A program made the translations under genes and the position numbers. This document shows positions 13,499 to 31,001 of a stretch of DNA of 64,000 nucleotides, one piece after another. This DNA comes from Fusobacterium varium (GTDB lineage Bacteria; Fusobacteriota; Fusobacteriia; Fusobacteriales; Fusobacteriaceae), in assembly GCA_900637705.1 (NCBI GenBank), contig LR134390.1, forward strand, positions 2,356,001 through 2,420,000, read 5' to 3'. Below the pieces are notes generated by a model that saw only the letters and a program-made list of their open reading frames with translations, ran no database searches and had not been told where the DNA came from. Numbering within the stretch: the stretch's first letter is position 1; every line of letters starts with the position of its first letter.

Positions 13499-14930
13499 TG
13501 TTTGCCACCTCGCAAAGATTTAACTCTTTTATTACACTTTTAAGCAAATCTATTGCTTCTTCCAATTTGTCTATAGATTCTTGAGCACTTTCAACAGGAT
13601 CAGGCAAATCATCAGAATCAATCATTGAGTCATCTCTTATTAGACCTAAATCCAATGAATAATCTTTTTTTATAACCTCTTCAAGAGTTATTAAATTCCA
13701 TCTCTCTAATTTTTCTTTCTCTTCTACTGAATCAAATGTTTCTTCAAATTCTTCAAAATGACTGCTTGTAAGAGGAGTATTCTTTCCAAAATTTGGCATG
13801 TTAGTTCTTAAATCATAGTACCAGGTTTCTTTTGTATTATTTACATCAGTTCTCCCTCTTTCAAAAAATAATACATTTGTTTTTACACCTTGAGCATAAA
13901 ATATTCCAGTTGGTAATCTTAATACAGTATGAAGATTACACTTATTTAATAAATCCATTCTTATATCTTTACCTACTCCGCCTTCAAACAATACATTATC
14001 AGGAATAATTACAGCTGCTCTAGCTTTTCCTGTTGTTTTCAGAGATCTATAGATGATCTGTAAAAAGTTTAATTGTTTATTTGAAGTTTCATGAACCAAA
14101 TCATCTCTTGTTACCCTTTCTCCACCTTTTTTAGTTCCAAATGGTGGATTTGAAAGGATAAGATCAAAATTTCTAAGCTGTTTCCCTGTTTCTGACAAAG
14201 AATCTCCTTGAATAAAATTTCCATTTATTCCATGAAGCAATGCATTCATTATTCCTAATCTATGTGTATCTGGCACAAGTTCACAAGCAGAAAAAGCTTC
14301 TGTTGCTTGAAATTCTCTTTCTTCATCTGTTACTGGTCTTTCTTTAGTACCAAAATAGTCATCATATTTTCTTCTCAAATATTTATCTGCTTCTATTATA
14401 AACCCAAATGTTCCTGCTGCTGGGTCACATATTCTTTCCCCCAACTCTGGTTTTATGATTCTCACAATTGAATCAATAAGAACTCTAGGAGTAAAATATT
14501 GTCCTGCTCCTGATTTTTTTTCAGAAGCATTTTTTTCTAAAAGTCCTTCATATAAATCCCCTAAATCTTCTTTATCAACAGAATACCAATCAATTTTATT
14601 AATTTCATTAAAAATCTTTTTTAAATTTGCTGGTTCCTCAATTTTAGTTTGAGCATTTCTATATATAATTCCAAGTTTACCATCAATTTGCCCCAAATCT
14701 AACAAACATTTTTGATAATTATTTTTTAATTCTATTCCTTCTAACTTTGCTAATTCCTTCCACCTATATTTCAAAGGAATTCCTATTTTTTCTTCATTTT
14801 CTAATTCTGAAGACATTTTTAAAAACAGTATATATGTTAATTCAGTCACATATTCATGATATGTAATCCCATCATCTCTCAAAACATTACATAAATTCCA
14901 TAACTTTTGCACTACTTCATTACTTGTCAT
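13491..14930 (-). CDS. hsdM: Type I restriction-modification DNA methyltransferase subunit (N6-adenine)
   Basis: HsdM transfers a methyl group from SAM to adenine in the sequence chosen by HsdS. The 479-residue protein has an N-terminal HsdM_N helical region (about 1-125). The methylase core follows, with SAM-binding motif I DPAAGT (169-174) and catalytic motif IV NPPF (261-264), the gamma-class order. The motifs SGAGQYFTPR and LRLPTGIFYAQGVKTNVLFF are also typical. The SD GGGAGA precedes the ATG. It lies 13 bp after hsdR and overlaps hsdS, so all three are co-transcribed. The gene is intact as written. Confidence 0.96.
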   Translation of the reverse strand: MTSNEVVQKLWNLCNVLRDDGITYHEYVTELTYILFLKMSSELENEEKIGIPLKYRWKELAKLEGIELKNNYQKCLLDLGQIDGKLGIIYRNAQTKIEEPANLKKIFNEINKIDWYSVDKEDLGDLYEGLLEKNASEKKSGAGQYFTPRVLIDSIVRIIKPELGERICDPAAGTFGFIIEADKYLRRKYDDYFGTKERPVTDEEREFQATEAFSACELVPDTHRLGIMNALLHGINGNFIQGDSLSETGKQLRNFDLILSNPPFGTKKGGERVTRDDLVHETSNKQLNFLQIIYRSLKTTGKARAAVIIPDNVLFEGGVGKDIRMDLLNKCNLHTVLRLPTGIFYAQGVKTNVLFFERGRTDVNNTKETWYYDLRTNMPNFGKNTPLTSSHFEEFEETFDSVEEKEKLERWNLITLEEVIKKDYSLDLGLIRDDSMIDSDDLPDPVESAQESIDKLEEAIDLLKSVIKELNLCEVANNG

Positions 14931-14943
14931 TTTTATCTCCCTA

Positions 14944-17900
14944 CTAGTTTAATATTATTTCCTTACTAATTACATTTAAAATTTCATCTAACATACCTTC
15001 TAAATTTTTATCAACTTTTGAATATCCCCCATATGTTTCTTTTAATATTCCACCTTCAAAGTCTTCCTTAGTTAGATATCCATCACTTCTTAAGAGACTC
15101 TCTATTCTTTCAAGAATAGTCTTTTGTTTTGGAGACCAATTTTTTAGTCTCTTTATTTTAATCATAACATCATTTATTTTTTCTTCTCTGTCTATAATAG
15201 GAGATCCATAAATTGCATTTTTAATAAAAGTCAGCATATCTGCTAAAATATCTTCATTTTTTACTTGCTTATATGCAGCATTTAAATTTGCTTTACTATA
15301 TCCTTCAAGATCAAGAATTTTTGTAATCTCTTCTAAATCTGTTTTTTTGAAATCCTGAGGTGATTTTTTAAAATTTTAATTGCTTCTATCTTATCTGAAG
15401 AATTTAAAATATATTTTCTAAAACCTTCCAAATAGTCTTCTGGTCTCTCCGCTTTTCCAAAATCTTGTTTAATATATTTTATTTCGTCTGTATGTTCATA
15501 AATTACTTTTTCTTTTTCTGCTATTTTTAACCCATCTAAGTGTAAGAGGAATTTTTTTTCTTTCATCAATGTTTCATATATTTTTTCTTTAGGAGTATTC
15601 TTCAGATAATCTATATACTCATCAATATCAGATATTTCTTCTCCTCTCATATAGCCAGAAAAAGTTTTTAAGTGATCTGAACCAGCTTTTTTTATTCTAT
15701 TTTTTTTCCTTTGAATTCTTCCTATTACCTCATCTAAAAGATATCCTATATTTTTATCATTTCCATCAATTTTATCCAAATCCCCAAGGAGTTTTTTCAA
15801 GTTTATTTTAGGATCTGCCACAACTGGTTTCATATCTGTATAATCTTTTAAATCTGAGTAAATATCAACTGCATCATAAATTTTAAAATATTCCTTATTT
15901 ATTTCTTCACATAATCTTGTAGCTCTTCCTATCATTTGCTCATATAGAATTCTACTTCTTACTTTTCTTAAAAATACAAGATTACAAATTTTAGGAACAT
16001 CTATTCCTGTAGTTAAAAGATCCACTGTAACTGCTATCGTTGGATAATTCTCATTTTTAAATTTTTTATAAGTTTATCAACATCTTTTACTGATCCTGTA
16101 ATCTTTTCTATCATATCATTATTCATAGAATACATCTCAAGTTTATCAAATTCTTCTCTCAATATTCTAACCAACATATCAGCATGTTCATCAGTAGCTG
16201 CAAATACAAGAGTCTTTTCAGGTCCTTCTGGATTTATATAATTTACCAATGCTGAACAAACAGCTCTATTAAATCCTTCAGTTATGACTTTAGTATTAAA
16301 CTTATCCACATCAAAATCAAGTTCATCTTTTAAATCTTTTATTACTTTTATCTCTTGTGTTTCTGAATCAAAAACTTTTATTTCACTTCCTTTTTCAAAG
16401 TGAATTCCATCACTGGATAATCTGGTAATAATTCTATATGGTGGTTCAAAATCAACAAGATTTCCATCTAAAACAGCTTGTCTATATGAATATTGATATA
16501 CAGGTTCTCCAAATATCTCATAAGTATGAACTGCTGGTGTTGCTGTCAAAGCTATTTTATCTGCTTCAAAATAATCTATGACACTACGATATTTACTTTG
16601 ATATTCTTTTTCATCATTAAAAAATGCTTCTTCCTCAGTTGGAATTCTGTCTAAAATGTATCCCCTGTGAGCTTCATCTATTACAATACAGTCATATTGT
16701 CCAACTGTAATTGCATCATCATTTGAATACAATACTCTTTTTATAAGCCCTTGAACAGTGGCTACATGTATTTTTGTAGTATCTTCCGGTTTTTTATCTT
16801 TTAATCCTTTAATATCATAGATTTCAGAAATTTTTAATTGCTGATCTACTTTAACATTATCAAAGGTATCTTTTGCCTGCTCTCCCAAACTTGCTCTATC
16901 TACTACAAATAATATTCTATTATATTTTTTACTTTTTAATAACCTGTATAAAATAGCTAGAGCTGTTCTTGTCTTTCCGGTTCCAGTAGCCATAGTTAAA
17001 AGAACTTTATTTTGTCCTTTTATAAGTGCTTCTTCCACAGCTTTTACTGCTTCTATTTGATAATTTCTAAGACCTAATCCACTTTTAGATTTCAGATATT
17101 CCATAGGTTCATCCTGTAAAAGTTTATTAGCTAGCATTTCATCTTTAGCTAATAATTCTTTTAGATCTCTTGGAGAATAAAATCCTTTTAAAGCCTTAGG
17201 AGCATTTTTTTGTCTTCTTCCATCTAAAAACCATATTCCTGACTTATCTATCAATTCTTTATTATATGCTCTTCCATTACTTGAGAACATAAAGGGAGCT
17301 TTATATTCACCCAAAAAAGGAGCTTCATCACAAAGCTTAATTCCATCTGGTATTATCACTCCTTTAGAATACATTCTGCTCTCTCTTTTTAAAGCATTTC
17401 CTACATCAACTTTTTTTCTTTTAGCTTCTAGAGTTCCATAGAGAGTATTTCCATAAAAAAGAGCATAATCAACATATCCATTTTTTCCATCCTCTTTTAT
17501 ACATGGCCATTCCGCTATTGCCATAAATCTACTCTTTTCAGGCATGGTTTTGTTAGATTTATAATTAAGTTTAATTGTATCTGCTTCCCACCCTGCGTCT
17601 CTTAACTGCTGATCTATTAAAGCTCTTGTTTCTTCTTCAGTTAATTCAACACTTTTTTTATTTTTTATCAACTTAATTCTTTCTTCTGATGTTCTAAAAG
17701 AAAGTTGCTCCGGCACTAACTCATCAAACTTTTTCTTTTCTTCTTGTACTTTTGATAAAAGTTTTTCATAAGCTTCCTTATAATCAACTCGCTCTGGTTT
17801 TTTATATTGAACTGATTCTGAATTAAAAGAATAATCACTTCCATAAATTTCATTAAACCAACCACAAAGTTTTACTACTAATGACAAAAGAGTCTCAGCT

Positions 17901-18208
17901 TCGCTTTCATTTCCAGACATATTATGTACAGCTGTATTTCCTTTTTTTCTAATAAGTTGTAGTATATTTTCTATATCTTCTGGAATTAAATCATATGTTT
18001 TTAAAATTTTTATTCTATCAAGTTGACTTCCACTTTCTGGTTCGTTTAATTTTTCAACCTTTAACATTGACTTTGCTATATATTCTCCAAGCTGCCTTAT
18101 TTTTATAATTGCAGTATTAGGATCCTTATGAAGAGTATACTCTGCCATCTCTCCAATTTTAGCTAAAATATTCCAGTCTTTTTTTAAAAATTGAAAATTT
18201 GTATACAT
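14944..18208 (-). CDS. hsdR: Type I restriction enzyme motor/nuclease subunit (EcoEI type), frame broken at two A6 runs
   Basis: HsdR is the ATP-driven DNA translocase and endonuclease of the complex. Domains in order are: an N-terminal DUF4145-like helical region (about 1-130); a PD-(D/E)xK HsdR_N nuclease (GYVDYALF then GTLEAKRK, about 250-270); an SF2 helicase with Walker A MATGTGKTRTA and DEAH box VIDEAHRGY; helicase motif VI GRATRLC; and an EcoEI-type C-terminus. The frame breaks at 16062-16067 and 15364-15369. One added base in each run restores KKFKNENYPTIAVTVDL and KKSPQDFKKTDLEE, giving 1088 residues. The start at 18208 follows GGAGGGG and is preferred over an ATG five codons upstream. 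As written it would be inactive as a translocase. Confidence 0.9.
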
Positions 18209-18370
18209 TCTTTTCCCCTCCATATTTTAAAATTCATATTTATTTTAAATATATGCTCTATTTTAATTTTTATTGTATATTTTTCTCCATTACTTTTAAT
18301 TGTATCATTTTTTAAAAGGGATTAATAGTTCTTCTTTAATCTAATTTTAACTATTATTTCTCTAATTACA

Positions 18371-18423: not shown

Positions 18424-20067
18424 CTATTTATAATCCACTAATAAATTTTTCTTATAAAAAGCTATTCCTATTTTAACTATGTCCTTTACTCCTCTTTCTT
18501 CTAATATAGCAGTATATTTTTTCTTCTCTATCTGCTCTAAAGCCTCTTTTACATGATATTCTAATTTTTCTTCTGATTCTATTTTAGATAATTTAAACTC
18601 AAATATATAACCAGTATGATTTTTATACCTAGGCTCTAATATTATATCTGCTCTTCCATCTCCTGTTTCTGTATTAGAAAGAACTATATATTCTTTTTCC
18701 AATATTACCATCATTCCTAATACAAATCCATGATAAAAAGCTTCTTTATTATCATAAGAACTCATTGCTACCTGTAATATTCTCCTCAAATTAGATTCAA
18801 AAGAATTTTCTCCTACAATTCTTTTTTTCTTTAAATTAGTGATCATATCTTCAAAGTACCTTGTATTCTTATTAGAAATTTTTTCTAAAAATACTTTTCT
18901 AAAAAATGAATATATTTCTCTATTAGGTATTTTCATAGAAATTTTTTCAGAAGTTATTATTTTATCAAGAGAAAGATATCCTGTGTACAGAAGCAAAGAC
19001 CATAAACTATTTTGTACAGTTAAATCATCAAACAGTAAATTTTCATCTATATATTGTTCTACACTTTCTCCTGAAAATAATTTTTTCAAATCTTCAAAAA
19101 TTTCATTGTCAGCTTCTTTTAAAACTTCATTTATTAAAAAATTATCTGAGCTATTCACCCAATATGATTTCAATAATCTACTTTCTATATAGTACAAAAT
19201 TGACCATGGGTTATATATTTCTGTATTTCCAAACTTATATCCATTATACCAGTCTTTTACAGCTTCTAATTTATACTCGATTTGATAATATTTTAAAGCT
19301 GACTCGACTTCATCTTCCGTAAGTCCAAAATATTGTGAATAGTCATCATCCAATATACTGTAAACCATTAGATTATTTAATCCAGAAAATATTCCTTCTT
19401 TTGCTACTCTTAGTATCCCTGTCATCACTCCAATATAGAGGTATTTATTTCCTTTTAAAGTCGAACTGTACAATCCTCTAAAAAATTCCATAGCTTCTTT
19501 ATAGTAATCATTTTCATATGCGGAAACAATAGCAGTATCATATTCATCAATCAGAACAACTACTTTTTTTCCATATTGATCATATAATAACTGTGACAAA
19601 AATTTTAAGGAATTAATTACTTCAACCTCATTTGCTTCTTTCTTTAAATATTTGATAAACACTTCTTTATCTATTGAATTCAAGCCTTCTAAAATATCTA
19701 TATTTTCTCTGTATACTTCACTTATCAATATCTTAACCTGTTCAAACAGTTTTTCATATGTATTAAATTTAACTTCTTTAAAAGAAATAAATATGACTGG
19801 ATATTGCCCTTGTTCAGCCATTATTGAAGTTTTTTCTATATTTAAATTTTTAAATAGTTCTCTATTTTTTTCATTTCCCTTTATATCATAAAAATATTTC
19901 ACCATAGACATATTTAAGGTTTTTCCAAATCTTCTTGGCCTTGTAAATAATAATGTTTTCCCTATATTTTTAGATATCTCTTTGATAAACAGACTTTTAT
20001 CTGCATAAAAATACTCATTATCTATTATATTTTTAAAATCATCTATTCCTATTGGCAGCTCTTTCAC
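18424..20067 (-). CDS. AAA-ATPase-like + PDDEXK_9 domain protein
   Basis: This protein of about 547 residues belongs to a family that occurs in many copies in fusobacterial and Bacteroidetes genomes. The N-terminal AAA-ATPase-like domain begins LPIGIDDFKNIIDNEYFYADK and carries the TRPRRFGKT P-loop-like motif and VVLIDEYDTAI. The C-terminal PDDEXK_9 nuclease-like domain shows GRADIILEP followed by YIFEFKLSK, that is, D and E-x-K metal ligands. I choose a GTG start at 20067 (good SD GAGAGGTGG, family-typical beginning) over an ATG seven codons upstream. The role is unproven; defence, toxin or mobile-element functions have been proposed. It sits just upstream of hsdR on the same strand, with a terminator between. 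Confidence 0.85.
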   Translation of the reverse strand: MKELPIGIDDFKNIIDNEYFYADKSLFIKEISKNIGKTLLFTRPRRFGKTLNMSMVKYFYDIKGNEKNRELFKNLNIEKTSIMAEQGQYPVIFISFKEVKFNTYEKLFEQVKILISEVYRENIDILEGLNSIDKEVFIKYLKKEANEVEVINSLKFLSQLLYDQYGKKVVVLIDEYDTAIVSAYENDYYKEAMEFFRGLYSSTLKGNKYLYIGVMTGILRVAKEGIFSGLNNLMVYSILDDDYSQYFGLTEDEVESALKYYQIEYKLEAVKDWYNGYKFGNTEIYNPWSILYYIESRLLKSYWVNSSDNFLINEVLKEADNEIFEDLKKLFSGESVEQYIDENLLFDDLTVQNSLWSLLLYTGYLSLDKIITSEKISMKIPNREIYSFFRKVFLEKISNKNTRYFEDMITNLKKKRIVGENSFESNLRRILQVAMSSYDNKEAFYHGFVLGMMVILEKEYIVLSNTETGDGRADIILEPRYKNHTGYIFEFKLSKIESEEKLEYHVKEALEQIEKKKYTAILEERGVKDIVKIGIAFYKKNLLVDYK

Positions 20068-20195
20068 AAATATCCACCTCTCTTTCATCTCATTCTCTTA
20101 TATTATATCATATCTCTTTCTGCTTTTATATTTAATCTCTAATTATATTCCTAATTTCTTTTCAAAATACTTTTCTTTAATACTTAATTAATGTA

Positions 20196-20247: not shown

Positions 20248-21612
20248 TTAATTATATGAAATATAGTCATCTTTATTCTTGCTTGAAGCAGTTTCACACT
20301 CTACTTTATTTACTTTATATCCTTTTTTTATCTCAAGTGCTCCCTTTAAGATAGGATCATCAGTTTGAATCTGTTTTTCAAGCAATACTTTTCTTAGATT
20401 TTCCAGAACCTCTTTGTATCCAGAATCATTTACAAGATTGTTTCTTTCTGTTGGATCATAATATAGATCAAAGAGCCCTTCACTATATTTAACTTTTTCT
20501 TTTAATCCATTATTCATAAGAAAATCTTTTGGCACAGACTCATCTATATTTGAAAGATTAATTTTATTCCAAGATTCATCATAATATTTTATATACTTGT
20601 AACGTTTTGTTCTCACACATCTTACAGGTTCATAAGATGTATGGAAATTTATTTCAGCAAATATATATTCATCAAGCAAAGCTTTATTATCAACAAAAGC
20701 TCTAGCAAAAGACTTCCCTTCTAAATAATCAGGTTTATTCAAGTTAAGAAGTTCACATAATGTAGGAAATACATCTATTTGTGAAACTAAACTATCTACA
20801 ACTTTTCCATTAGAATCAGCATTAGGAACTTTCATTATCAATGAAACTCCTATTCCAGTATCTGTAAGATTGCATTTATTAAATGGAAGTGCCACTCCAT
20901 GATCTGTTGTAAAAATTATAATAGAATTTTCATAAAGATTATTTCTTTTTAAAGCATCCATTATCATTTTTATATTTTCATCTGCATAGTGAGCAGTTGT
21001 CATATATTGAGCATGGTCATGTCTGTTTTCCTCATTATTAGTAATTGGATAAGGAGGAACTACATATCTTTCATCTATAATTTCAGCCACTTCTATAGGA
21101 TAAGGTCTATGAGTGCTGTGCATTCCAAAAGACAACAGAAATGGTTTTTCATCATTATAGTTATCAAGCCATTTTACTACTTCAGCAGCATTATTTCTAT
21201 CCCATAAATGTAACTCTTCTTTTTTAAATGGTTTAGAATCAGTTGTAATTATTTCCTTATATCCTAAATTATGCAATCCATTTTTTTCTAAATCCAGATA
21301 CCACCCATATTCATGTTGTATTCCACACAAACAAGTATTATATCCATTATTTTTTAAAAAATTAGCTAAATGTTTTTCAGGATTATAAAGAGAAAATCCT
21401 CTTTGAGCTAATCCAAGCATTCCATTTTGATGTGGAAAAGTTCCTGTTAAAAGAGCAGCTCTGCTTGGAGAACAAGTTGGTCCTGCACAAAAAGCATTTG
21501 TAAAAACCACAGAATCTTCTGCCAGTTTCTTTAGATTTTCAGTTGGAATATCATACCCATAAGGACTCAACATTCTTCCACTGTCATGTGTATTTATATA
21601 TATAACATTCAT
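20248..21612 (-). CDS. Cys-type sulfatase
   Basis: A 454-residue sulfatase of the alkaline-phosphatase superfamily. The signature GPTCSPSRAALLTG places the formylglycine precursor at Cys47. Metal ligands are visible in YINTHDSG near the start (an unusual H-D instead of the common D-D) and in FTTDHG. It removes sulfate esters. No signal peptide is present, so it probably acts in the cytoplasm on an imported sulfated sugar. A formylglycine-generating radical SAM enzyme would be needed and is not in this window. It is the last gene of a PTS-nanE-DUF3604-sulfatase unit, 19 bp after its neighbour. The substrate is inferred only loosely from nanE. Confidence 0.88.
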   Translation of the reverse strand: MNVIYINTHDSGRMLSPYGYDIPTENLKKLAEDSVVFTNAFCAGPTCSPSRAALLTGTFPHQNGMLGLAQRGFSLYNPEKHLANFLKNNGYNTCLCGIQHEYGWYLDLEKNGLHNLGYKEIITTDSKPFKKEELHLWDRNNAAEVVKWLDNYNDEKPFLLSFGMHSTHRPYPIEVAEIIDERYVVPPYPITNNEENRHDHAQYMTTAHYADENIKMIMDALKRNNLYENSIIIFTTDHGVALPFNKCNLTDTGIGVSLIMKVPNADSNGKVVDSLVSQIDVFPTLCELLNLNKPDYLEGKSFARAFVDNKALLDEYIFAEINFHTSYEPVRCVRTKRYKYIKYYDESWNKINLSNIDESVPKDFLMNNGLKEKVKYSEGLFDLYYDPTERNNLVNDSGYKEVLENLRKVLLEKQIQTDDPILKGALEIKKGYKVNKVECETASSKNKDDYISYN

Positions 21613-21631
21613 CTGTTGCTGATAGCCTCCT

Positions 21632-23163
21632 TTATTTTACAAATATAGGGGAACTCCATGCAGCTCCACCATCTTTCTGCCATACTCTCACTCTAACATT
21701 TGAAATGTTAGTAGTATCTATAGTTTTTTCTATTCTTCTTGTGTAGCCTGAAACAGGAACAGCTTTAGAAAGCTTTATTTTATAAGCATTATGCCACCAA
21801 GGATCAGTTCTGTAATACTCTGTAAAATTAAAGTTTTCTTTTAAAAGGTCTTCTGCTTCTTCCAATAATGGTATCAATCTAGAAGATTCAAATAATTCTT
21901 TTACCTCAAACTTATACTCTTTTCCATCAACTGTAAGAGTGATAAAACTATCAATAGGAGCTGATATTTCAAATATAAACCCTTCTGTTGTTACAGCACT
22001 AGGTCCCATCCATTTTCCTGTAGCTGTTGTTTTATATGAAGTTAAATCAAATTTACAACTGTTGTCTGTAACATCATATAGACGCTGTCCAAAATTACTC
22101 CAGCATTTTTCAATAGATAAAATTTTCCCTTCTGTTGAAAGAGAACCACTCCAGTTTCTTGATTTTATATCAGGAAATATCCTTCTGTCTGGTCCCCAGC
22201 CAAAGTCTGCTTTAAATTTAAATTGAACATTTTTATCAAGAGCTTTCTTTTCCCATGTTGAAGTATGAGGAATCATTTCAGTTGTTATATTATCTTCTAT
22301 AATCTCTATTCTATCTATTGCATTTGAAGCTTCTACATTTAGTACAAGTTTAGAGTCTTTTTTTGGAGTTACACTCCCCCCCATGATAGTATCATCTATT
22401 GAAAAATCCAGTTTTATTCTATCTTTGCTTACTCCATAGACTCTTTTATTTATAAAGGCATCCCAAATACTTTCTTTTGTATTATCCTCAGCCAATACAG
22501 CAATGTATCCAAATCCATAAACTCCAGGAACAGAATGATTATCTCCAGAAGCTATCACTCCAAATTGATGTCCTTTCTCCCAACCTTTTCTACAGCTGTT
22601 ACTCCTGTTCTAGGTCCCATATGAATATGTCTGTCCATTGTAAACTGACTTTCGTCATTTTCACTAGAACCATGTGATGAATAAATTTCTGCAAATGGTG
22701 AAAACTTATCATTGTGTGTTTCCCAGTTTTTTCCCCTATGACCAAGTTCATATGCCAGATGATGAGGAATAGCTATACAATCAACCTCTCTAAAGTTTTT
22801 TTCAAGCTCTGAATATCTAAGAGGAAAATATGGATTTTGATTATTCTTTAAAAAGAAAACATTATGATCTCCATCTTTTCCTGCTCCCTGCCATTCATAT
22901 CCCATGAACATAGGGAAGCCCTCTTTATTAACTTTTTCAGTAAATTCTCTTATATATTCCCAATCAGCCTGTACTTTGTCCATAGAGTAAATATCCTCTA
23001 CTCCCAGTCCACACTCATCTTTTCTCATATAATATGGATAATATGCAAAAGGCCAGAAATCAAAAATATCTTTCACCTGCTCAAACCATAAGGGTAATTT
23101 ATTTATACTCTCATGATGTAGATTACTGTGCATATCACTCCATAGTATTTTATATTTGTTCAT
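21632..23163 (-). CDS. DUF3604/PHP-like metallohydrolase, frame broken at an A4 run
   Basis: The two open frames 23163-22555 and 22558-21632 are halves of one 510-residue protein. At 22586-22589 one added base changes EKVGRKD-stop to EKGWEKGHQFGVIASGDNHS, which joins them cleanly. The N-terminal half resembles PHP/DUF3604 proteins, with metal-binding His clusters WSDMHSNLHHE, AIPHHLAYE and SGDNHS. The C-terminal half is beta-rich with no known catalytic motif. DUF3604 proteins are often found with sulfatases and glycan-use genes, as here (sulfatase 19 bp downstream, nanE 18 bp upstream). The reaction is unknown; a phosphoester or sugar-derivative hydrolase is plausible. No signal peptide is seen. 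Confidence 0.72.
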
Positions 23164-23181
23164 AATTTTTCACCAACCTCT

Positions 23182-23865
23182 CTAATATTTTAATGGAATT
23201 TTCCTTTTGTATTTATTCATAATACTTGTGAATCTCAATGTTGATAGATGAGGTCTTGTGATTGCGCTTCCAATTACAACAGCATGAGCTCCAAGATAAA
23301 GACTTTGAATTGCTTCTTCAGGAGAAGTAATTTTCCCTTCCATGATTACAAATCCTAGTCCTTCACAGGCTTCTACAATTCTTGCCAGTTCTTCAAAATC
23401 TGGTGAATCTGTAGATTTTGGATTATCATTGAATCTATATAGTGTAGGAGCAACCATATGTGCTCCTATTTTTAAAGCTTCTCTTGCCTCTTCAGCATTT
23501 CTGATATCAGCAAGTATTAATAAATCAGGATATTTTTCTTTTATTTCTGGAATAAGCTCATAAGCTTTTCTTCCATAACTATTTACTCTATTTGTAGCAT
23601 CAACTGCCACAATATCAGCCCCAGCATTTACTATTTCATCTACCTCTTTCATACTTGGGGTGATAAAGACATCTTCTGTTTCCATATTTATCTTCCACAA
23701 ACCAATAATGGGCTTGTTTGTAATTTTTCTTACTTTTATTATATTTTCAGGTGTATCTATTCTATATCCACAGGCATCTCCCCATTCACCACATGCTACC
23801 AGTTTTTCAATTATTTCTGGAAGATAAAGCGGATCAGTCTTTTTTACCTGACAAGATAAAATCAA
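23182..23865 (-). CDS. nanE: N-acetylmannosamine-6-phosphate 2-epimerase
   Basis: NanE interconverts ManNAc-6-P and GlcNAc-6-P. The TIM barrel is well conserved: LILSCQ at the start, PIIGLWK, DIVAVDATNR, ILADIRNAEEA, MVAPTLYRF and AVVIGSAITRP. The start is uncertain. A TTG at 23865 keeps the whole frame. An ATG at 23870 has the better SD spacing (AGAGGA, 8 bases) but would need one extra T in the following T3. Placement behind a PTS EIICB gene and before the DUF3604-like and sulfatase genes suggests use of an amino sugar, possibly sulfated. No nanA or nagA/nagB lies in the window. Confidence 0.9.
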   Translation of the reverse strand: MILSCQVKKTDPLYLPEIIEKLVACGEWGDACGYRIDTPENIIKVRKITNKPIIGLWKINMETEDVFITPSMKEVDEIVNAGADIVAVDATNRVNSYGRKAYELIPEIKEKYPDLLILADIRNAEEAREALKIGAHMVAPTLYRFNDNPKSTDSPDFEELARIVEACEGLGFVIMEGKITSPEEAIQSLYLGAHAVVIGSAITRPHLSTLRFTSIMNKYKRKIPLKY

Positions 23866-23942
23866 ACCATTTTTTATGTCCTCTATTATTTTTTATTTTT
23901 ATTATTCATAAGAATCACTATCCTTATATTATATATTATACT

Positions 23943-25517
23943 CTATAATGTGGCAACATATTCGTCAATTTCTGTTCTAATAAGATTTACTGTTGGTCCA
24001 TAAATGATTTGAAGATTTTTTCCTCTAGTAACAACATTATGTGCCCCTGTTTGTTTTAACATATCAATATTTACTTTATCAAGTTTTTTAACTGATACTC
24101 TTAATCTTGTAGCACAATTATCAAGATCAGCAATATTTTCCATTCCTCCTAAAGCTTCAATTATAGTTTTAGCTTCTCCAGAAGTATATTTTCCTTTTAA
24201 GCTCTTCTCTTGTTCCTCATCATCTTCTCTTCCTGGTGTTTTAGCATTCAATTTTTCTATAAGAAATTTGAATAGGAAATAATTTACTATAAATATAGGA
24301 ATTCCTAAGATAAGTATCCAAATGTAATTAGTTTTAGAATTTCCTTGGAATACTCCAAATAGTAAAAATTCAACCAATCCAGCTGAGAAAGTAGACCCTA
24401 TTGTAATTTTAGCTATTGCTGCAATAACAAAAGATATTGCAAAGGAAACTGCTTCTGCTACAAAAAGCAGAGGTGAAGCAAATAATAAAGCAAATGATAT
24501 TGGTTCAGTAACTCCAGTTAAGAAACTTGTAAGTCCTATTGAAAATAAGAAACCGAATGTTGCTTTTCTTTTTGGTCCTTTTGGAATAGCTGTATACATA
24601 GCTAAACATATAGCTGGCATTGTAAATATCATATGGAAATATCTTCCACTGTTATATAAAGCTATATTTGAAAAATATCTAACTGTATTGTGATCAGCTA
24701 ATTGTGCAAGAAATATATTCTGCCACCCTTCAATAACTTTTCCTCCAACCTCTAAAGTTCCTCCAGCAGCTGTAGTCCAGAATGGAAGATAGAATACATG
24801 GTGAAGACCTAAAACATAGAATCCTCTAAGAACAAGCCCATATATAAAAGCTCCAAATATTCCCAATCCCTGAGTAAGAACTCCAAAATAAGCAATCATA
24901 GCTGCTATTGCCGGCCAAACAAAAACCATGATTAAAGATATAATCATAAATACAATTGTATTAACTATTGGAACAAACCTTGATCCTCCAAAGAAAGCCA
25001 GCACATCAGGGAGTTTAGTTTTATAATATTTATTATGAACTACCCCAGTTACAATACCAGCTAAAACTCCTCCAAAAACATTCATATTAAGAGTTTTTAT
25101 TCCAAACTGTACAGCTTGTCCATAAAGACGTATATCTGCACCAGCAGGAGCTCCTTTTCCAAAAATACTTATAAATGCTCCTGTTCCTGTCAAAAGAACA
25201 AAATAACCAACAACTGCTGAAAGACCAGCAGATCCTTTTTCATTTTTTGCTAATCCAGCAGCTATACCTACAGCAAAAATTAATGGCAATGCAGCAAAAA
25301 CCCCATTTCCTACAGCATTCATTAATTTAAGCAACCCTTGCAATGCAGCATTATCTAAGACAGAATAAGCCTTTATAGCTGCTCCTGATGATAATGCAGC
25401 AGAAATCCCAAGTAAAAGTCCTGCTACTGGTAAAATAGAAATAGGCATCATGATAGCTTTACCTAACTGTTGTCCTAAGCTAAAAAGATTGTCTTTTAAA
25501 CTAACTTTCCCTTCCAT
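23943..25517 (-). CDS. PTS EIICB transporter, glucose/N-acetylglucosamine superfamily
   Basis: This 524-residue protein has an N-terminal EIIC domain with about ten membrane segments (IMMPISILPVAGLLLG, GLHHVFYLPFWT, GVTEPISFALLF). A linker rich in charged residues follows, then a C-terminal EIIB domain with the phosphorylated cysteine in DNCATRLRVSV. No EIIA domain is fused, so a separate EIIA is needed. It imports and phosphorylates a sugar. With nanE next in the operon, ManNAc or a related amino sugar is the likely substrate. The ATG at 25517 follows GGAGG; an ATG five codons upstream has no SD. It is divergent from the GntR/UTRA regulator at 25691. Confidence 0.9.
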   Translation of the reverse strand: MEGKVSLKDNLFSLGQQLGKAIMMPISILPVAGLLLGISAALSSGAAIKAYSVLDNAALQGLLKLMNAVGNGVFAALPLIFAVGIAAGLAKNEKGSAGLSAVVGYFVLLTGTGAFISIFGKGAPAGADIRLYGQAVQFGIKTLNMNVFGGVLAGIVTGVVHNKYYKTKLPDVLAFFGGSRFVPIVNTIVFMIISLIMVFVWPAIAAMIAYFGVLTQGLGIFGAFIYGLVLRGFYVLGLHHVFYLPFWTTAAGGTLEVGGKVIEGWQNIFLAQLADHNTVRYFSNIALYNSGRYFHMIFTMPAICLAMYTAIPKGPKRKATFGFLFSIGLTSFLTGVTEPISFALLFASPLLFVAEAVSFAISFVIAAIAKITIGSTFSAGLVEFLLFGVFQGNSKTNYIWILILGIPIFIVNYFLFKFLIEKLNAKTPGREDDEEQEKSLKGKYTSGEAKTIIEALGGMENIADLDNCATRLRVSVKKLDKVNIDMLKQTGAHNVVTRGKNLQIIYGPTVNLIRTEIDEYVATL

Positions 25518-25603
25518 AATCAACCTCCACATTTAATTTATGTACTTTATTTCATTGATGTACTCCAACTAAGTTGATTATAATTCAAAAAAAAACACTT
25601 GTC

Positions 25604-25625
25604 AATACAAATTATTTGTTGTATT
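25604..25625. promoter_or_regulatory. Inverted repeat in the divergent PTS/GntR intergenic region
   Basis: AATACAA-8 bp-TTGTATT is a perfect 7-bp inverted repeat. A further TTGTATT half-site lies at 25642. The position between the divergent PTS operon and its regulator makes it the best operator candidate for the GntR/UTRA protein. Confidence 0.5.
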
Positions 25626-25690: not shown

Positions 25691-26410
25691 ATGGAAGATA
25701 AAAAAGTTTCAAAGTATCAATTGATAGAAAGTTATATAGTCGAAGGAATACAAAGTAATCATTATAAAGTTAATGATATTCTTCCAACAGAAGCAGAACT
25801 GGCTGAAAAGTTCAACTGTTCCAGAGTTACTGTTCGTCAGGCATTAAGTAATCTGGCATATAAAGGTATTATCTATAGAATACAAGGGAAAGGATCTTTT
25901 GTATCAAAGGAAAATACTTTAAAACGTTCTCCACTCTTAAAAAGTTTTACAGAAGATATTCTTGATATGGGGAAAAAGCCATGGTCAATAGTAGAAACTT
26001 TTTACATAACAAAAGTTGGAGAGCATATTGGAAGGATAATGGGACTAAAGCCTAATGAAAAAATCTATTATATTGAAAGAATAAGATTTGCTGATAATGA
26101 TCCTATTCTTTTTGAAAAAACATATATGGAAATATCTAAACACCCTGAAATATCAGTAAAAATATTAGAAGGCTCTAAATATGAATATGCTAAAAAACAT
26201 GGAATGGAAATATCTATTTCTTATCAAAATATAACTCCTGTATTTCCTCCTGAAAATATAGCTGAAAAATTAAAAATTTCTTCTAAAACACCTATTTTAA
26301 AATTGTCAAATGTTACATATTTATCAAATGGAGAACTTTTTGATTACAACGAATTATATATGAATACTGAATTGTATCAACTGAATATAGTAAAAAAAGT
26401 TGAAAAATAA
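25691..26410 (+). CDS. GntR family regulator, HutC/UTRA subfamily
   Basis: This 239-residue regulator has an N-terminal winged helix (DILPTEAELAEKFNCSRVTVRQALSNLAYKG, about residues 25-60, with IYRIQGKGSFV as the wing). A UTRA effector domain (about 90-235) follows, which in this subfamily binds a sugar phosphate. It is divergent from the PTS-nanE-sulfatase operon and probably represses it until ManNAc-6-P, GlcNAc-6-P or a similar compound builds up (inference). AAGGAGAGG precedes the ATG. Confidence 0.92.
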   Translation: MEDKKVSKYQLIESYIVEGIQSNHYKVNDILPTEAELAEKFNCSRVTVRQALSNLAYKGIIYRIQGKGSFVSKENTLKRSPLLKSFTEDILDMGKKPWSIVETFYITKVGEHIGRIMGLKPNEKIYYIERIRFADNDPILFEKTYMEISKHPEISVKILEGSKYEYAKKHGMEISISYQNITPVFPPENIAEKLKISSKTPILKLSNVTYLSNGELFDYNELYMNTELYQLNIVKKVEK

Positions 26411-26705: not shown

Positions 26706-27509
26706 TTATATTTTTTTAAATATTGGTTCCATTTTTTTAAAAGAACAAATATATTTTTTCCCAGCATTTCTCAAAAAATCATAAACAATATCAAAGTCTT
26801 TAGCTACATCTTCTTTTTTATGAGCATCAGAACCTACTGTTATAATCTCTCCACCAAGTTCAAAATATCTATTTAATACTTTTATATGGGGATAAAATCT
26901 ATCTTCCCTATATCTATAACCTGAAGTATTTATCTCTATTCCTTTTCCTTTGGAAATAATCTTTTTTAATATTTCATCAATAATATCTCTTTGAATTTCA
27001 TAATTTAATCCTTTGGAGGCATCTCCACCATATCTTGTGATGAAATCAAGATGTCCATAAACATTGTACTCCTCATATACTTCAACATTTTTTAATACAT
27101 TTTCAAAATACATGGTCTGTATCTCATCTTTCGTCTTTCCTTTATGTATCTCTCCAAAGGATATATCTTTTCCATTAATTGCATGGCTAGATGCAATTAC
27201 AAAATCAAAAGGATACTTTTTTATTTTCTCCTCTAAATATTTCTTTGTATGAGGTTGTATTCCAACTTCCACCCCTAATTTTATTTCTATATCTTTTCTA
27301 TATTTTTCTTTCATAATTCCTATCTTCTGAGTATAACTTTCTAAATCTAATATCCACTTTCCAGTTATGCCCTCCATATCATATTCCAAATGATCTGTTA
27401 TTGCTATCTCTTCAATCCCCATACTTATAGCCTTTAATATTAATTCATCTATATTTTGAATTGAATCTCCTGAAAATTCACTATGTAAATGATAGTCACT
27501 TAAAATCAT
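26706..27509 (-). CDS. PHP-domain phosphatase, histidinol-phosphatase (HisK/HisJ) family
   Basis: A 267-residue metal-dependent phosphoesterase of the PHP family. The metal-binding motifs are DYHLHSEFSGDS at the start, ITDHLE, GVEVGIQP, IASSHAINGKDI, YGHLDFITRYG and GSDAHKKEDV. The family includes histidinol-phosphatase, but no his gene is nearby. It is the last gene of an ABC importer operon, 12 bp after the ATPase gene. Dephosphorylation of the imported compound or its breakdown product is therefore at least as likely as a role in histidine synthesis. The SD AAGAGG precedes the ATG. Confidence 0.85.
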   Translation of the reverse strand: MILSDYHLHSEFSGDSIQNIDELILKAISMGIEEIAITDHLEYDMEGITGKWILDLESYTQKIGIMKEKYRKDIEIKLGVEVGIQPHTKKYLEEKIKKYPFDFVIASSHAINGKDISFGEIHKGKTKDEIQTMYFENVLKNVEVYEEYNVYGHLDFITRYGGDASKGLNYEIQRDIIDEILKKIISKGKGIEINTSGYRYREDRFYPHIKVLNRYFELGGEIITVGSDAHKKEDVAKDFDIVYDFLRNAGKKYICSFKKMEPIFKKI

Positions 27510-27521
27510 ATTTACCTCTTT

Positions 27522-28537
27522 TTATTTTAAATTTTTCAATTCTTTTTTTAAAAACATAAGCTCAACTTCTGAGCCTACAGTATATATTTTATTCTCTCCA
27601 CGATTAAGAAGATCTACAATTATATCTATTCCATTAATTTCAGTAAGATATCTTATTACATTTCCAAGTATATTTATATTTTTTATGAAAGCCTTTTTAC
27701 AGATAAAATTAGACATTTCATAATTTCTGCCTCTCTCTTTTATATAGATTGCTTCTGGTCTAATAGCAAGATTATCATATTTCTCCTCTGGAAATAAAAT
27801 TTCTATCTGTTTTCTGTCAAAAATATTATAATTTCCTATAAACTTAGCTAAAAAAATACTGCTTGGAGATGTATATACCTCTTCTGGAGTTCCCATTTGA
27901 ACTATATTTCCTTTATCCATAACAAATATTCTATCAGATATAGTAAGAGCTTCTTCCTGATCATGTGTAACAAATATAGTCGTTATATTCAAATGTTTCT
28001 GTATTTTCTTTAATTCATCTCTTAATGTTTTTCTTACTTTTGCATCAAGAGCAGAAAGTGGCTCATCCAGCAAAAGTATTTTAGGTTCCATTATAACTGA
28101 TCTGGCTATAGCTGTCCTCTGCTTCTGTCCTCCACTTAACTGGCTTGGAAAGTTATGTTCTTTTCCCTCCAGCTGTACAAGGGAAACAATATTTTTTACT
28201 TTTTTATCTATCTCTTCTTTATTCATTCCCTTTACTGAAAGCCCAAAAGCTATATTATCATAGACATCAAGATTTGGAAAAAGAGCATAATTTTGAAATA
28301 CCATTCCTATTCCTCTGTCTTTAGGAGACTTACCTGTTATTTCTTCCCCATGAACATATATATTCCCCTCATCTATACTATTGAGCCCTGCCATACATCT
28401 TAAAAGAGTAGATTTACCACAGCCACTTGGTCCTAGTAAAGTTACAAACTCTCCCTTTTTACTTCAAAATTTATATTTTTAAATATATTTTCTTTCCCAT
28501 AACTTTTTTTCAAATTTTTAACTGATATAAATTCCAT
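27522..28537 (-). CDS. ABC importer ATP-binding protein (PotA/FbpC/PhnT-like), frame broken at an A5 run
   Basis: The ATPase drives uptake by the two permeases encoded upstream. With one added base at 28456-28460 the frame reads [20 protein letters not shown], restoring the Walker A motif and a 338-residue protein. Without it, translation stops after about 30 codons. The rest is intact: Q-loop MVFQNYALFPNL, signature LSGGQKQRTAIAR, Walker B LLLDEPLSALD, H-loop VTHDQEEA. A C-terminal regulatory (TOBE-like) region follows. The ATG at 28537 directly follows the permease stop codon and is served by the SD AAAGGAG inside that gene. Confidence 0.88.
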
Positions 28538-29322
28538 CTATTTATCTCCTTTTTCTTTGTTCAAACCAAATGCCAGAAATGTTATTATAAATATCATTAG
28601 AAAATACACTGTTACAACAGCACTGGAAAAATGTCCGCTTGTTCCTGTTCTAATACTATTTATATACATCTGCATGGTTTGGTATTTTCCTCCTACCAAC
28701 ATATTTACCAGCAGAAATTCTCCAAATAATATGGAAAAAGTCAATAATACAGATACCATTATTCCTTTTTTATATTTGGTATAATTAATTTCACAAAAGC
28801 TTTTGTAGTAGAAACCCCTAAAATATTTGCACTTTCTATAATTTCCCTCATAGGAAGTCCATTCATATTATTCTTTATTCCTCTATACATAAATGGAAAT
28901 GCTAGAACAAAATATACTCCAAGAAGAATATATAATGTCCCTGTAAGTTTCAATATCCCTCCTGAATATATTTTCATAAGTCCTACTACTGATACTGCTC
29001 CTGGAACTGAAAAACATATAAGAACCAAAAATTCCATCAATTTTTCTAATTTTGGAAAATAATAACTTGTTATAAATATTGAAGGAACCATTATTATTAC
29101 TATAAAACCAAGAGAAAAAAAGCAAATGAATACAGTTCTCAATAGAGCTTTTACTAAAAATGGCGATTTCATAATTTCAAAATACCATCTTATTGTCAGT
29201 CCATCTGGAAAAATACTTCCACTCCATTTTGTACTCAAAGAATATAAAAATGTTCCTACTACTGGTGTAAATAATAAAAATAATATTATAACTGCTATAA
29301 TTCCATGTTTTTTATTATTCAT
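28538..29322 (-). CDS. ABC importer permease, second subunit, frame broken at an A6 run
   Basis: A binding-protein-dependent transport permease with six membrane segments. The cytoplasmic coupling loop is MREIIESANILGVSTTKAF. One added base at 28766-28771 turns IPNIKKE-stop into IPNIKKGIMVSVLLTFSILFGEFLL, giving 261 residues and the last two helices. The break is an exact A_AAA_AAG heptamer in -1 phase. It overlaps the first permease gene by 8 bp and abuts the ATPase start. Confidence 0.86.
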
Positions 29323-30163
29323 ATTTTTTACCTCTTTTTACAAATATTTCGTTTATAGCAGTAGCTGTGATTAAAAATACTGCTAGAACTACTGCTAAAG
29401 CACTTGCTAAACCCGGTTCATATGAAGTTTCTCCTGCTATATAACTTGTTATTCTAATAGTCATTACATTATAATTTCCACTTGTAAGTGCTAAGGTACA
29501 AGCATATGCTCCCATAGCATTGGCAAAAAGTATCAGCATAGTTCCTGTAATTTCCAGAATAAGCATTGGAATTCCTATTCGCCTCCAGAAAATCATTTTG
29601 CCAGCTCCAAGTATATATGCCATTTCCTCCCATTCTTTCTGTAACTTTCCAAAACTTGGATAAAGCAGTAAAATACCTAAAGGTATTTGAAAATATGTAT
29701 ACATCAATATTAATCCTGATTTTGAAAAAAGATTAAAGTTTCCTAATAATCCCAACTGTCTTAGAATAATTGTAAGTACTCCATTTAGTCCGAAAAGAAT
29801 TACAAATGAAAAGGCAAGAGGTATTCCATTGAAATTAGATATCATATTTATCAATAATATTATTATTTTTTTAGAACTATTTTTTAATCTATTAAGAGAG
29901 TAGGCCCCTTGGAAAGCTATGATTATTCCAAAAACAGTTGAATATAATGAAAGCTCAACAGAATTTTTAATTGCCTGTGTTAAAAATTTACTTCTGAAAA
30001 CTACAGCATAATTATTTAAAGTAAATTCTCCACCAACTGTGTAGAAACTTCCAGCTATTACATTCAAAAAAGGAAGAAGTTGAAACATCAACATTATAAA
30101 GAAAAATGGAAGCAGTAATAATAAAGCACCTCTTTTTTCCTTATTTTTCAGTAGTTTCTTCAT
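29315..30163 (-). CDS. ABC importer permease, first subunit
   Basis: A 282-residue inner-membrane permease of the spermidine/iron/phosphonate type with six membrane segments. The EAA-like coupling loop is EWEEMAYILGAGKMIFWRRIGIPML. Its start overlaps the end of the upstream phosphodiesterase-like gene by 23 bp, so translation is probably coupled. It pairs with the permease at 28538-29322. Confidence 0.9.
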   Translation of the reverse strand: MKKLLKNKEKRGALLLLLPFFFIMLMFQLLPFLNVIAGSFYTVGGEFTLNNYAVVFRSKFLTQAIKNSVELSLYSTVFGIIIAFQGAYSLNRLKNSSKKIIILLINMISNFNGIPLAFSFVILFGLNGVLTIILRQLGLLGNFNLFSKSGLILMYTYFQIPLGILLLYPSFGKLQKEWEEMAYILGAGKMIFWRRIGIPMLILEITGTMLILFANAMGAYACTLALTSGNYNVMTIRITSYIAGETSYEPGLASALAVVLAVFLITATAINEIFVKRGKKYE

Positions 30164-30971
30164 ATTCTATATCCACCATCCTCTGAGATTTTTTAATATT
30201 CATCATTTCACAACACAGTGGAGCAATTATTTTTTGAGATATTTTTCCCTGCATATCTTTCTTCAATTTTCTTTTTCTAATTTTATCTCCTATCAACCAC
30301 ATAGGTACAAGAGTTTCATCTGGGGATATTCCTCCGTGATTTCCTAGTTTGCTCATTCCATGATCTGAAGTAATAATAATTTGATATCCTTCTTTTATCC
30401 AGTTTGGCACCAATGCTGAAAGTATGTCAGATATTTTTCTGGCACTATCTATATATTCACTGGAGGTTCCTCCAAATTTATGCCCTATGTCATCTACGTT
30501 CATAGAATGGATAAGAAGAATATCTGGATTGTATTTCTTTCTTAAGATTTCTCCTTGAACGAAAAGATGGGTATCTGGAAAGTTATCTTCCCAATAAAAT
30601 CTTCCATAATTAATATTTGCCATTTCATTTTCTGTTTCACTATCTCTTATTCTATCAAATCCCCCAGTATTGTATAGTTCATTTACCCAGTAATATGCTG
30701 CTGCTGCTGTTTTTTTCCCATTTTTTACTGCCAATGAAAAGACACTCTCTTCTTTTGATAATCTTTTAATTTCATTATTTACTATTCCGCTATTAACAGG
30801 AGAAACCCCTGTAAGTATTTCTTCATACAAGGGTCTTGATAAACTGGGATATCCACTTTGAACTTTATAACTGTCTGTTAAATTTTCACTTTTCAAAGCT
30901 TCTAAAAATCCCATATATTTTTTTGTTCCATAACTAAGTCCATCTATTATAACTAATATTACCTTTTCCAT
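30141..30971 (-). CDS. Alkaline-phosphatase-superfamily phosphodiesterase (nucleotide pyrophosphatase-like)
   Basis: A 276-residue hydrolase. Superfamily metal sites are seen in VILVIIDGLSYG at the start, HSMNVDDIGHKFGG and ITSDHGMSKLGNHGG. The nucleophile is probably the Ser in SGYPSLSRPLY. There is no signal peptide, so it is cytoplasmic. It lies between the binding-protein gene and the permease genes of an ABC importer, so it probably acts on the imported substrate. Relatives cleave phosphodiesters, nucleotide sugars or phosphonoacetate. This makes an organophosphate or phosphonate the best guess for the transported compound (inference). Confidence 0.82.
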   Translation of the reverse strand: MEKVILVIIDGLSYGTKKYMGFLEALKSENLTDSYKVQSGYPSLSRPLYEEILTGVSPVNSGIVNNEIKRLSKEESVFSLAVKNGKKTAAAAYYWVNELYNTGGFDRIRDSETENEMANINYGRFYWEDNFPDTHLFVQGEILRKKYNPDILLIHSMNVDDIGHKFGGTSSEYIDSARKISDILSALVPNWIKEGYQIIITSDHGMSKLGNHGGISPDETLVPMWLIGDKIRKRKLKKDMQGKISQKIIAPLCCEMMNIKKSQRMVDIEYEETTEK

Positions 30972-31001
30972 TATTTTCTCCTGATTATTTTATCTTAGAT
31001 A

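What the first reader, a model, noticed from the sequence alone, without database searches (positions are those of the whole stretch)
20248..25517. PTS-nanE-DUF3604-sulfatase operon: a possible sulfated amino-sugar pathway
An EIICB importer, ManNAc-6-P epimerase, a DUF3604/PHP-like protein and a cytoplasmic Cys-type sulfatase lie together, opposite a UTRA regulator. The absence of a signal peptide on the sulfatase suggests desulfation after uptake. Mucin or glycosaminoglycan fragments in the gut are a plausible source. The usual nan genes (nanA, nanK) are absent, so this is not a plain sialic-acid operon.
Basis: inference. Interest (0 to 1): 0.65.

Follow-up and report, generated by a model that had tools for sequence, protein, structure and literature searches.

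The report
Import-then-desulfate amino-sugar operon
A gut-type fusobacterium carries a conserved, undescribed gene set that most likely imports a sulfated amino sugar by the PTS and removes the sulfate inside the cell, but this genome lacks the enzyme that normally activates the sulfatase.

Summary
The operon is real: UTRA regulator facing EIICB-nanE-DUF3604-sulfatase, with 18-19 bp between the last three genes and a consensus promoter. Here DUF3604 and the nanE start are frameshifted; four congeners carry DUF3604 intact, with nanE. The same cassette, with varied transporters, recurs in Firmicutes, Synergistaceae and Fusobacteriota: 52 loci found, plus 7 in relatives. The DUF3604-like PHP-fold protein and a transporter are its core. 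The sulfatase sits in 34 of the 58 loci tabulated. NanE, a second sulfatase, TauE, anSME and NagB are optional. All 47 cassette sulfatases scored are Cys-type without a leader, so desulfation after uptake is well supported. All 22 other genomes tested that carry the cassette hold an anSME-type maturase; the window's genome alone has none (61 bits against about 400; FGE also absent), because a roughly 48 kb stretch is missing. The pathway is therefore probably crippled in this strain. The sulfatase fold is closest to human sulfamidase (SGSH, Z 41.7), but has Lys where SGSH has its N-sulfatase Arg282. NanE family, NagB in two Halolactibacillus operons and the SGSH-like fold point to a sulfated hexosamine. 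Its exact identity, the role of DUF3604, and a mucin or GAG source remain open.

The parts
25691..26410 (+). GntR/UTRA-family regulator, divergent from the operon
   Evidence: PF07702 99.6 bits, PF00392 62 bits; homologue in 29 of the 58 loci tabulated; 98% identical in G001
25597..25613 (-). candidate operator AATTTGTATTGACAAGT (TTGT-N4-ACAA palindrome) overlapping the -35 box
   Evidence: invariant in all five congeneric sequences aligned; assignment as operator is inference
25577..25605 (-). sigma-70-type promoter TTGACA-17-TATAAT, 12/12 match, about 60 nt upstream of the EIICB start
   Evidence: best of 38 promoter-like sites in the region, whose number is at the shuffle level; position relative to the gene
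23943..25517 (-). PTS EIICB, glucose/GlcNAc/maltose family, no EIIA domain (ORF extends to 25532)
   Evidence: PF02378 203 bits, PF00367 52 bits, TIGR02002 437 bits (below its equivalog cut-off 592); PDB EIICB-Glc 263 bits
23182..23909 (-). NanE-family 2-epimerase, divergent paralogue; 1-nt deletion near 23893 puts the natural ATG (23909) out of frame
   Evidence: PF04131 148 bits, PRK01130 over cut-off; alignments with solved NanE and paralogues; congener start MNDKNKKIIEDIKNG
21632..23163 (-). DUF3604-like PHP-fold metalloenzyme gene, broken by a 1-nt deletion near 22586
   Evidence: two ORFs; intact 510-513 aa in G001, G002, G007, G009; PHP fold predicted on an orthologue
20248..21612 (-). 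leaderless Cys-type formylglycine sulfatase, SGSH-like fold
   Evidence: PF00884 and SGSH_C over cut-off; CSPSR motif; predicted model pLDDT 93, SGSH Z 41.7

Best explanation
The operon is an import-then-desulfate catabolic cassette. The UTRA repressor releases the promoter when a sugar-phosphate-like inducer is present (inferred from the family). The EIICB takes up and phosphorylates, presumably at C6, a sulfated 2-amino(or acylamino)-hexose. Inside the cell a formylglycine sulfatase, matured by an anSME coded elsewhere (or in the operon in some relatives), removes the sulfate, which TauE-type exporters expel where present. The DUF3604-like PHP-fold metalloenzyme carries out the second, obligatory step, most likely hydrolysis of a further substituent. 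The NanE paralogue brings the C2 configuration to gluco, and the product (GlcNAc-6-P or GlcN-6-P) enters NagA/NagB metabolism. Shown: gene content, conservation, absence of leaders, folds, maturase co-occurrence, NagB and NagA context. Inferred: substrate, order of steps, DUF3604 reaction, C6 phosphorylation, sulfate export. In the window's own genome the route is probably not functional as it stands, for lack of a sulfatase maturase and, if the frameshifts are real, of DUF3604.
For: Conserved operon in four congeners and cassette in Firmicutes, Synergistaceae and Halolactibacillus. Minimal cassettes (Holdemania and L064: PTS IIC/IID, DUF3604, sulfatase, UTRA). 34/34 and 13/13 cassette sulfatases Cys-type and leaderless. 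anSME inside the locus in six and TauE in eight of the loci tabulated. anSME-type protein in 22/22 other cassette genomes tested (18 over the curated cut-off, three at 333-334 bits, one split in two); among relatives 7/7 against 13/53 without the locus, P 0.0002. NagB in the L104 operon (PF01182), with FGE and TauE and anSME; gene order read by sequence. Sulfatase fold nearest to sulfamidase SGSH, Z 41.7, 2.2 A over 406 residues, next unrelated row 38.0. NanE residues Arg, Lys, Asp and Glu aligned with solved NanE retained. nagA in the genome, 327 bits.
Against: No canonical anSME and no FGE in the window's genome. DUF3604 and nanE frameshifted here. Some relatives have DUF3604 with a transporter but no sulfatase, and some loci use a TctABC transporter that does not phosphorylate, so sulfate and phosphorylation are not universal to the cassette. 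No heparinase enrichment. No experiment or paper supports the substrate.
Confidence: 0.55

Rival explanations
1. N-sulfoglucosamine (GlcNS) route: the PTS imports GlcNS from heparan sulfate breakdown, the SGSH-like enzyme or DUF3604 cleaves the N-sulfate of GlcNS-6-P and yields GlcN-6-P directly, so no deacetylase is needed.
For: SGSH is the top structural match; SGSH and the Pedobacter heparinus N-sulfamidase are members of subfamily S1_8 (PMC5066984); the Halolactibacillus operons have nagB and no nagA was read among their genes; a B. thetaiotaomicron BT4655 mutant accumulates N2-sulfated glucosamine in the medium, so it can be shared (PMC9067506).
Against: The SGSH-specific Arg282 is Lys246 in 30/30 members, the O-sulfatase state; S1_8 also holds lambda-carrageenan O-sulfatases; NanE is not needed in this scheme; no heparinase enrichment.
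Confidence: 0.2
2. The substrate is not an amino sugar: the sulfatase and DUF3604 process another sulfated sugar or sugar acid (such as an algal or plant sulfated hexose), and NanE acts as a promiscuous epimerase or is a later addition.
For: NanE occurs in only 10 of the 58 loci tabulated and never beside the second sulfatase; TctABC transporters in other loci; close sulfatase relatives in the PDB desulfate galactose units of carrageenan and porphyran.
Against: NagB in the operon of Halolactibacillus; cassette NanE keeps the catalytic residues; SGSH recognises glucosamine.
Confidence: 0.2
3. About this strain only (compatible with the best explanation for the cassette as such): the operon here is a decaying remnant. 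The maturase was lost with a 48 kb segment and the frameshifts in DUF3604 and nanE are real pseudogene lesions.
For: No anSME or FGE; syntenic 48 kb segment of G002 absent; frameshifts; another sulfatase of the genome also split.
Against: Frameshifts also hit unrelated genes (hsdR twice, canonical nanE, SSS transporter), as in an indel-rich assembly; EIICB, sulfatase and regulator remain intact at 95-98% identity.
Confidence: 0.35
4. A known sialic-acid/ManNAc operon that happens to lie next to an unrelated sulfatase and DUF3604 gene.
For: NanE family membership.
Against: DUF3604-sulfatase pairing conserved without NanE in most loci; a complete nan locus lies elsewhere in the same genome (L061).
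Confidence: 0.02

Closest known systems
PTS-NagA-NagB / NanE amino-sugar pathways
   Same: Glucose/GlcNAc-family EIICB, NanE-family epimerase, UTRA-type regulator, entry at GlcN-6-P likely; nagA is present elsewhere in this genome
   Different: No nagA, nagB, nanA or nanK in the operon; a sulfatase and a DUF3604-like enzyme are added
Human SGSH (sulfamidase), SulfAtlas S1_8
   Same: Closest fold (Z 41.7), Cys/FGly motif CSPSR, Arg74, His125, His181 and Asp273 equivalents
   Different: Asp31 to His9, Lys123 to Ile98, Asn274 to His238, and above all Arg282 to Lys246 (the O-sulfatase residue); cytoplasmic; 24-27% identity
S1_8 lambda-carrageenan sulfatases (9bb9, 9bef, 9bba)
   Same: 9bb9 is the best sequence match by profile (199 bits) and has Lys at the Arg282 position
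   Different: Polysaccharide substrate; about 25% identity
PHP-fold proteins TM0559 (2anu), BVU_3505 (3e38), PsfC (7rty); Pfam DUF3604; CehA/McbA
   Same: PHP fold in residues 1-250 (Z 17.4, 17.2, 15.6), invariant His/Asp/Glu set
   Different: Second His of the HxH motif is Asn (H11-S-N13); added beta-sandwich part 250-512; Pfam DUF3604 matches only about 35 residues; CehA/McbA below cut-off
Streptococcal hyaluronan PTS route (PMC9067506)
   Same: Host-glycan fragment imported and phosphorylated by a PTS and finished in the cytoplasm
   Different: Disaccharide, unsaturated glycoside hydrolase, no cassette sulfatase or DUF3604

Membership tests
S1 formylglycine sulfatase | C-x-P-S-R modification motif | tested here: met
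   CSPSR in window protein and in 30/30 aligned members
S1 formylglycine sulfatase | sulfatase fold and PF00884 | tested here: met
   145 bits; model pLDDT 93, the 50 structural rows shown all belong to this superfamily
S1 formylglycine sulfatase | maturase (anSME or FGE) available in the cell | tested here: inconclusive
   not found in the window's own genome; anSME-type protein present in all 22 other cassette genomes tested
SGSH-type N-sulfatase (EC 3.10.1.1) | Arg at the SGSH Arg282 position instead of the O-sulfatase Lys | tested here: not met
   Lys246 in 30/30 (criterion from PMC4014121)
SGSH-type N-sulfatase (EC 3.10.1.1) | cleavage of N-sulfate | not testable with these tools
   needs enzyme assay
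NanE epimerase | NanE family profile over its curated cut-off | tested here: met
   PF04131 147.8 (cut-off 27), PRK01130 199 (cut-off 189)
NanE epimerase | catalytic Lys and Glu aligned with solved NanE | tested here: met
   K of IIGLWK and E of IMEGK align with solved NanE; catalytic role from memory of the CpNanE work
NanE epimerase | same substrate (ManNAc-6-P) as canonical NanE | not testable with these tools
   GY to RF change in the TLxGYT loop in all cassette NanE proteins aligned, so the substrate may differ; needs assay
DUF3604 (PF12228) | Pfam gathering score over the domain | tested here: inconclusive
   over the cut-off (24.5-32.5 against 20.4) but only about 35 of 591 positions matched
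PHP superfamily | PHP fold | tested here: met
   2anu Z 17.4 (3.4 A, 208 residues), 3e38 Z 17.2, on the model of an orthologue
PHP superfamily | HxH metal motif | tested here: not met
   H11-S-N13 invariant; other His/Asp/Glu residues invariant in 35/35. Hence described as PHP-fold, not as a catalytically typical PHP enzyme
Glucose-family EIICB | EIIC and EIIB domains | tested here: met
   no specificity-level NCBIfam cut-off reached
Sialic-acid (nan) operon | nanA and nanK with nanE | tested here: not met
   absent here; nanA and a ROK kinase with a second nanE at 3.27 Mb

The most novel reading that the evidence does not exclude
A new pathway in which N-sulfated (or N-sulfated and O-sulfated) hexosamine-6-phosphates are handled in the cytoplasm: the cassette NanE, with its added Arg, epimerises a still-sulfated hexosamine phosphate, the SGSH-like enzyme removes an O-sulfate, and the DUF3604-like PHP-fold enzyme is a new type of metal-dependent N-desulfatase or N-deacylase. 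This would be the first function for this DUF3604-like clade.
Probability: 0.15. Interest if true: 0.75.

Novelty: new variant of a known kind. Interest (0 to 1): 0.5.

Why it matters
Desulfation of host glycans is mostly studied as a periplasmic or secreted process in Bacteroides. A cassette shared by many gut Firmicutes and Fusobacteria that imports the sulfated sugar first would be a separate, cross-feeding-like route to the same nutrient and would give a function to a DUF3604-like clade. It is directly testable in cultured species (Holdemania, Hungatella, Clostridium paraputrificum, C. cadaveris, Halolactibacillus). The genome with a cassette but no maturase is a natural test of whether these sulfatases need anSME.

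Tried and rejected
Programmed frameshifting in DUF3604: rejected because congeners have an intact frame and other genes in the assembly are split the same way. anSME candidate at G000:2714190: rejected, it scores 61-79 bits on TIGR03942 (cut-off 349), scores higher on other radical-SAM families and, read by sequence, lies among magnesium/cobalt-chelatase-like genes. Heparinase II/III enrichment: not significant. PDB sequence search with DUF3604: no usable hit. Rfam: none. No rho-independent terminator was found by the scan at the operon end. Literature: DUF3604 occurs in one unrelated paper; no paper on PTS plus cytoplasmic sulfatase was found, but the library holds open-licence papers only. 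In the fold list for DUF3604, rows other than PHP proteins are common beta-sandwiches and were disregarded.

Full report
What is there. The window is G000:C1:2356001-2420000 of a 3.3 Mb single-contig genome. The family is Fusobacteriaceae, since a same-family genome (G014) shares its 7046-base contig with a record named Cetobacterium (L086). On the minus strand, 25517 to 20248, lie EIICB, NanE, a DUF3604-like gene and a sulfatase, with a UTRA regulator facing them at 25691-26410. The gaps between nanE, DUF3604 and sulfatase are 18-19 bp. A 12/12 TTGACA-17-TATAAT site lies about 60 nt before the EIICB ATG, and a TTGT-N4-ACAA palindrome that overlaps its -35 box is invariant in five congeneric sequences. 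Calling it the operator is inference.

Defects in this copy. DUF3604 is split by a 1-nt deletion near 22586 and nanE lacks a base near 23893; four congeners (G001, G002, G007, G009) have an intact DUF3604 of 510-513 aa and an in-frame nanE start. The same assembly splits hsdR twice, the canonical nanE and an SSS transporter, and its ORFs are on average shorter than in the congeners' sampled regions, although G002's median is similar. Indel errors in the assembly are therefore likelier than a programmed shift, but real lesions are not excluded.

The cassette elsewhere. A search of 60 relatives found DUF3604 in seven further genomes. A profile scan of 84,980 species found 52 loci, mostly Erysipelotrichaceae, Holdemania, Lachnospiraceae, Hungatella, Enterocloster, Clostridium and Gemmiger, with a Synergistaceae genome, two Halolactibacillus and others. 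Clustering neighbours over 58 loci (52 plus six fusobacterial ones) gave: sulfatase of the same clade in 34, UTRA in 29, mannose-type PTS IIC/IID in 21-22, glucose-type EIICB in 12, NanE in 10, a second sulfatase in 13, TauE in 8, anSME inside the locus in 6, Tct transporter parts in 9. The ORF caller loses some genes in GC-rich loci, so these are lower bounds. NanE and the second sulfatase never occur together: 0 of 31 loci with DUF3604 and sulfatase, where 8 have NanE and 11 the second sulfatase (P 0.016, not corrected for relatedness). Two relatives (G030, and G014 whose contig is also L086) have DUF3604 with an EIICB and no sulfatase within the stretch fetched. So DUF3604 plus a transporter is the core, and sulfatase and NanE look like adaptations.

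Sulfatase. All 34 members of this clade and all 13 of the second clade carry the Cys motif and none has a hydrophobic N-terminus (a crude hydropathy test, not a signal-peptide predictor). The predicted model (pLDDT 93) is closest to human sulfamidase, Z 41.7, 2.2 A over 406 residues; the next rows are Z 38 and below. By sequence profile the closest is the lambda-carrageenan sulfatase S1_8A. SulfAtlas places SGSH and a heparan N-sulfamidase in S1_8 (PMC5066984). The SGSH structure paper names Arg282 as the residue that separates SGSH from O-sulfatases with Lys (PMC4014121). The aligned residue here is Lys246 in 30/30 members. Three further SGSH positions differ: Asp31 to His9 and Lys123 to Ile98 (mapped by the structural range start and the sequence alignments), and Asn274 to His238. 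I therefore do not call it a sulfamidase; an O-sulfatase on a glucosamine-like sugar fits better.

Maturase. TIGR03942 finds no anSME in this genome: best 61 bits against a cut-off of 349, and that protein scores higher on other radical-SAM families. FGE is absent. All 22 other cassette genomes tested hold an anSME-type protein: 18 over the cut-off, three at 333-334 bits and one split into 213 and 107 bits. Among the 61 relatives, 7/7 other cassette genomes have one against 13/53 without the cassette, P 0.0002. In G002 the anSME lies in a segment (about C1:1261646-1310035) that is missing from G000; an autotransporter gene lies at that place instead.

DUF3604-like protein. The orthologue model (pLDDT 92.5) has a PHP fold in residues 1-250 (TM0559 Z 17.4, BVU_3505 Z 17.2, PsfC Z 15.6) followed by beta-sandwich parts. 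Invariant D9, H11, N13, H15, E89, H99, H133, H134, E158, H163, H178, H180, D207 and H209 suggest a metal centre with Asn in place of the second His of HxH. [quoted passage not shown] Pfam DUF3604 matches only about 35 residues.

NanE. It passes the NanE cut-offs and keeps the Arg, Lys, Asp and Glu aligned with solved NanE, but all cassette NanE proteins aligned replace the Gly-Tyr of the TLxGYT loop by Arg-Phe. An extra positive charge near the sugar would suit a substrate with one more negative group, such as a sulfate; this is inference. The genome has an ordinary TRAP-ROK kinase-yhcH-nanA-nanE locus at 3.27 Mb and a nagA at 2.06 Mb.

Amino-sugar link. The Halolactibacillus operon (L104) holds DUF3604, EIIBC, NagB, sulfatase, EIIA, TauE, FGE and anSME, with a family-4 glycosidase just before. 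L105 has the same order by gene size and matches. This, NanE and the SGSH-like fold favour a sulfated hexosamine. A GAG origin is not shown: heparinase II/III-type genes occur in 11/23 cassette genomes against 6/22 others, P 0.22.

Verdict. Observation confirmed, with two frameshifts unnoticed. Interpretation partly supported. The system is an undescribed (within the papers searchable here) import-then-desulfate variant of PTS amino-sugar catabolism; substrate and DUF3604 reaction are open, and this particular strain is a doubtful place to study it.

Noticed in passing
window 26706-32087 (-): Neighbouring gene set: HisJ-like PHP phosphatase, ABC ATPase (best NCBIfam hit a putative 2-aminoethylphosphonate transporter, below cut-off; lacks its N-terminal part), two permease ORFs (one only 187 aa), type I phosphodiesterase/alkaline-phosphatase-like protein and a solute-binding protein; looks like uptake and cleavage of a phospho-compound.
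   Followed up: partly
window 13491-18223 (-): Type I restriction-modification hsdR is split into three frames (two frameshifts against the intact 1095-aa G001 protein) while hsdM is intact.
   Followed up: partly
window 18424-20088 (-): AAA-ATPase_like/PDDEXK_9 gene lies between the sulfatase and hsdR here but not in G001 or G007, so it is an insertion or was lost there.
   Followed up: no
L034 (G000:C1:1590000-1604000): Second Cys-type (CTPTR) leaderless sulfatase next to a sodium:solute symporter and a split ROK regulator: another probable import-then-desulfate pair.
   Followed up: partly
L036 (G000:C1:2876000-2886000): Third Cys-type sulfatase (frameshifted) with a sodium:solute symporter, two UTRA/GntR regulators, an AgaS-family isomerase and a tagatose-bisphosphate aldolase: looks like a sulfated galactosamine route.
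   Followed up: partly
G000:C1 about 3165900-3170580 against G002:C1:1261646-1310035: A 48 kb segment of G002 including the anSME is missing in G000; an autotransporter gene (1049 aa) lies at that place.
   Followed up: partly
G000:C1:2199216-2199608: Heparinase II/III C-terminal match in a broken frame, absent from the close congeners G001, G002 and G007 but present in G009.
   Followed up: no
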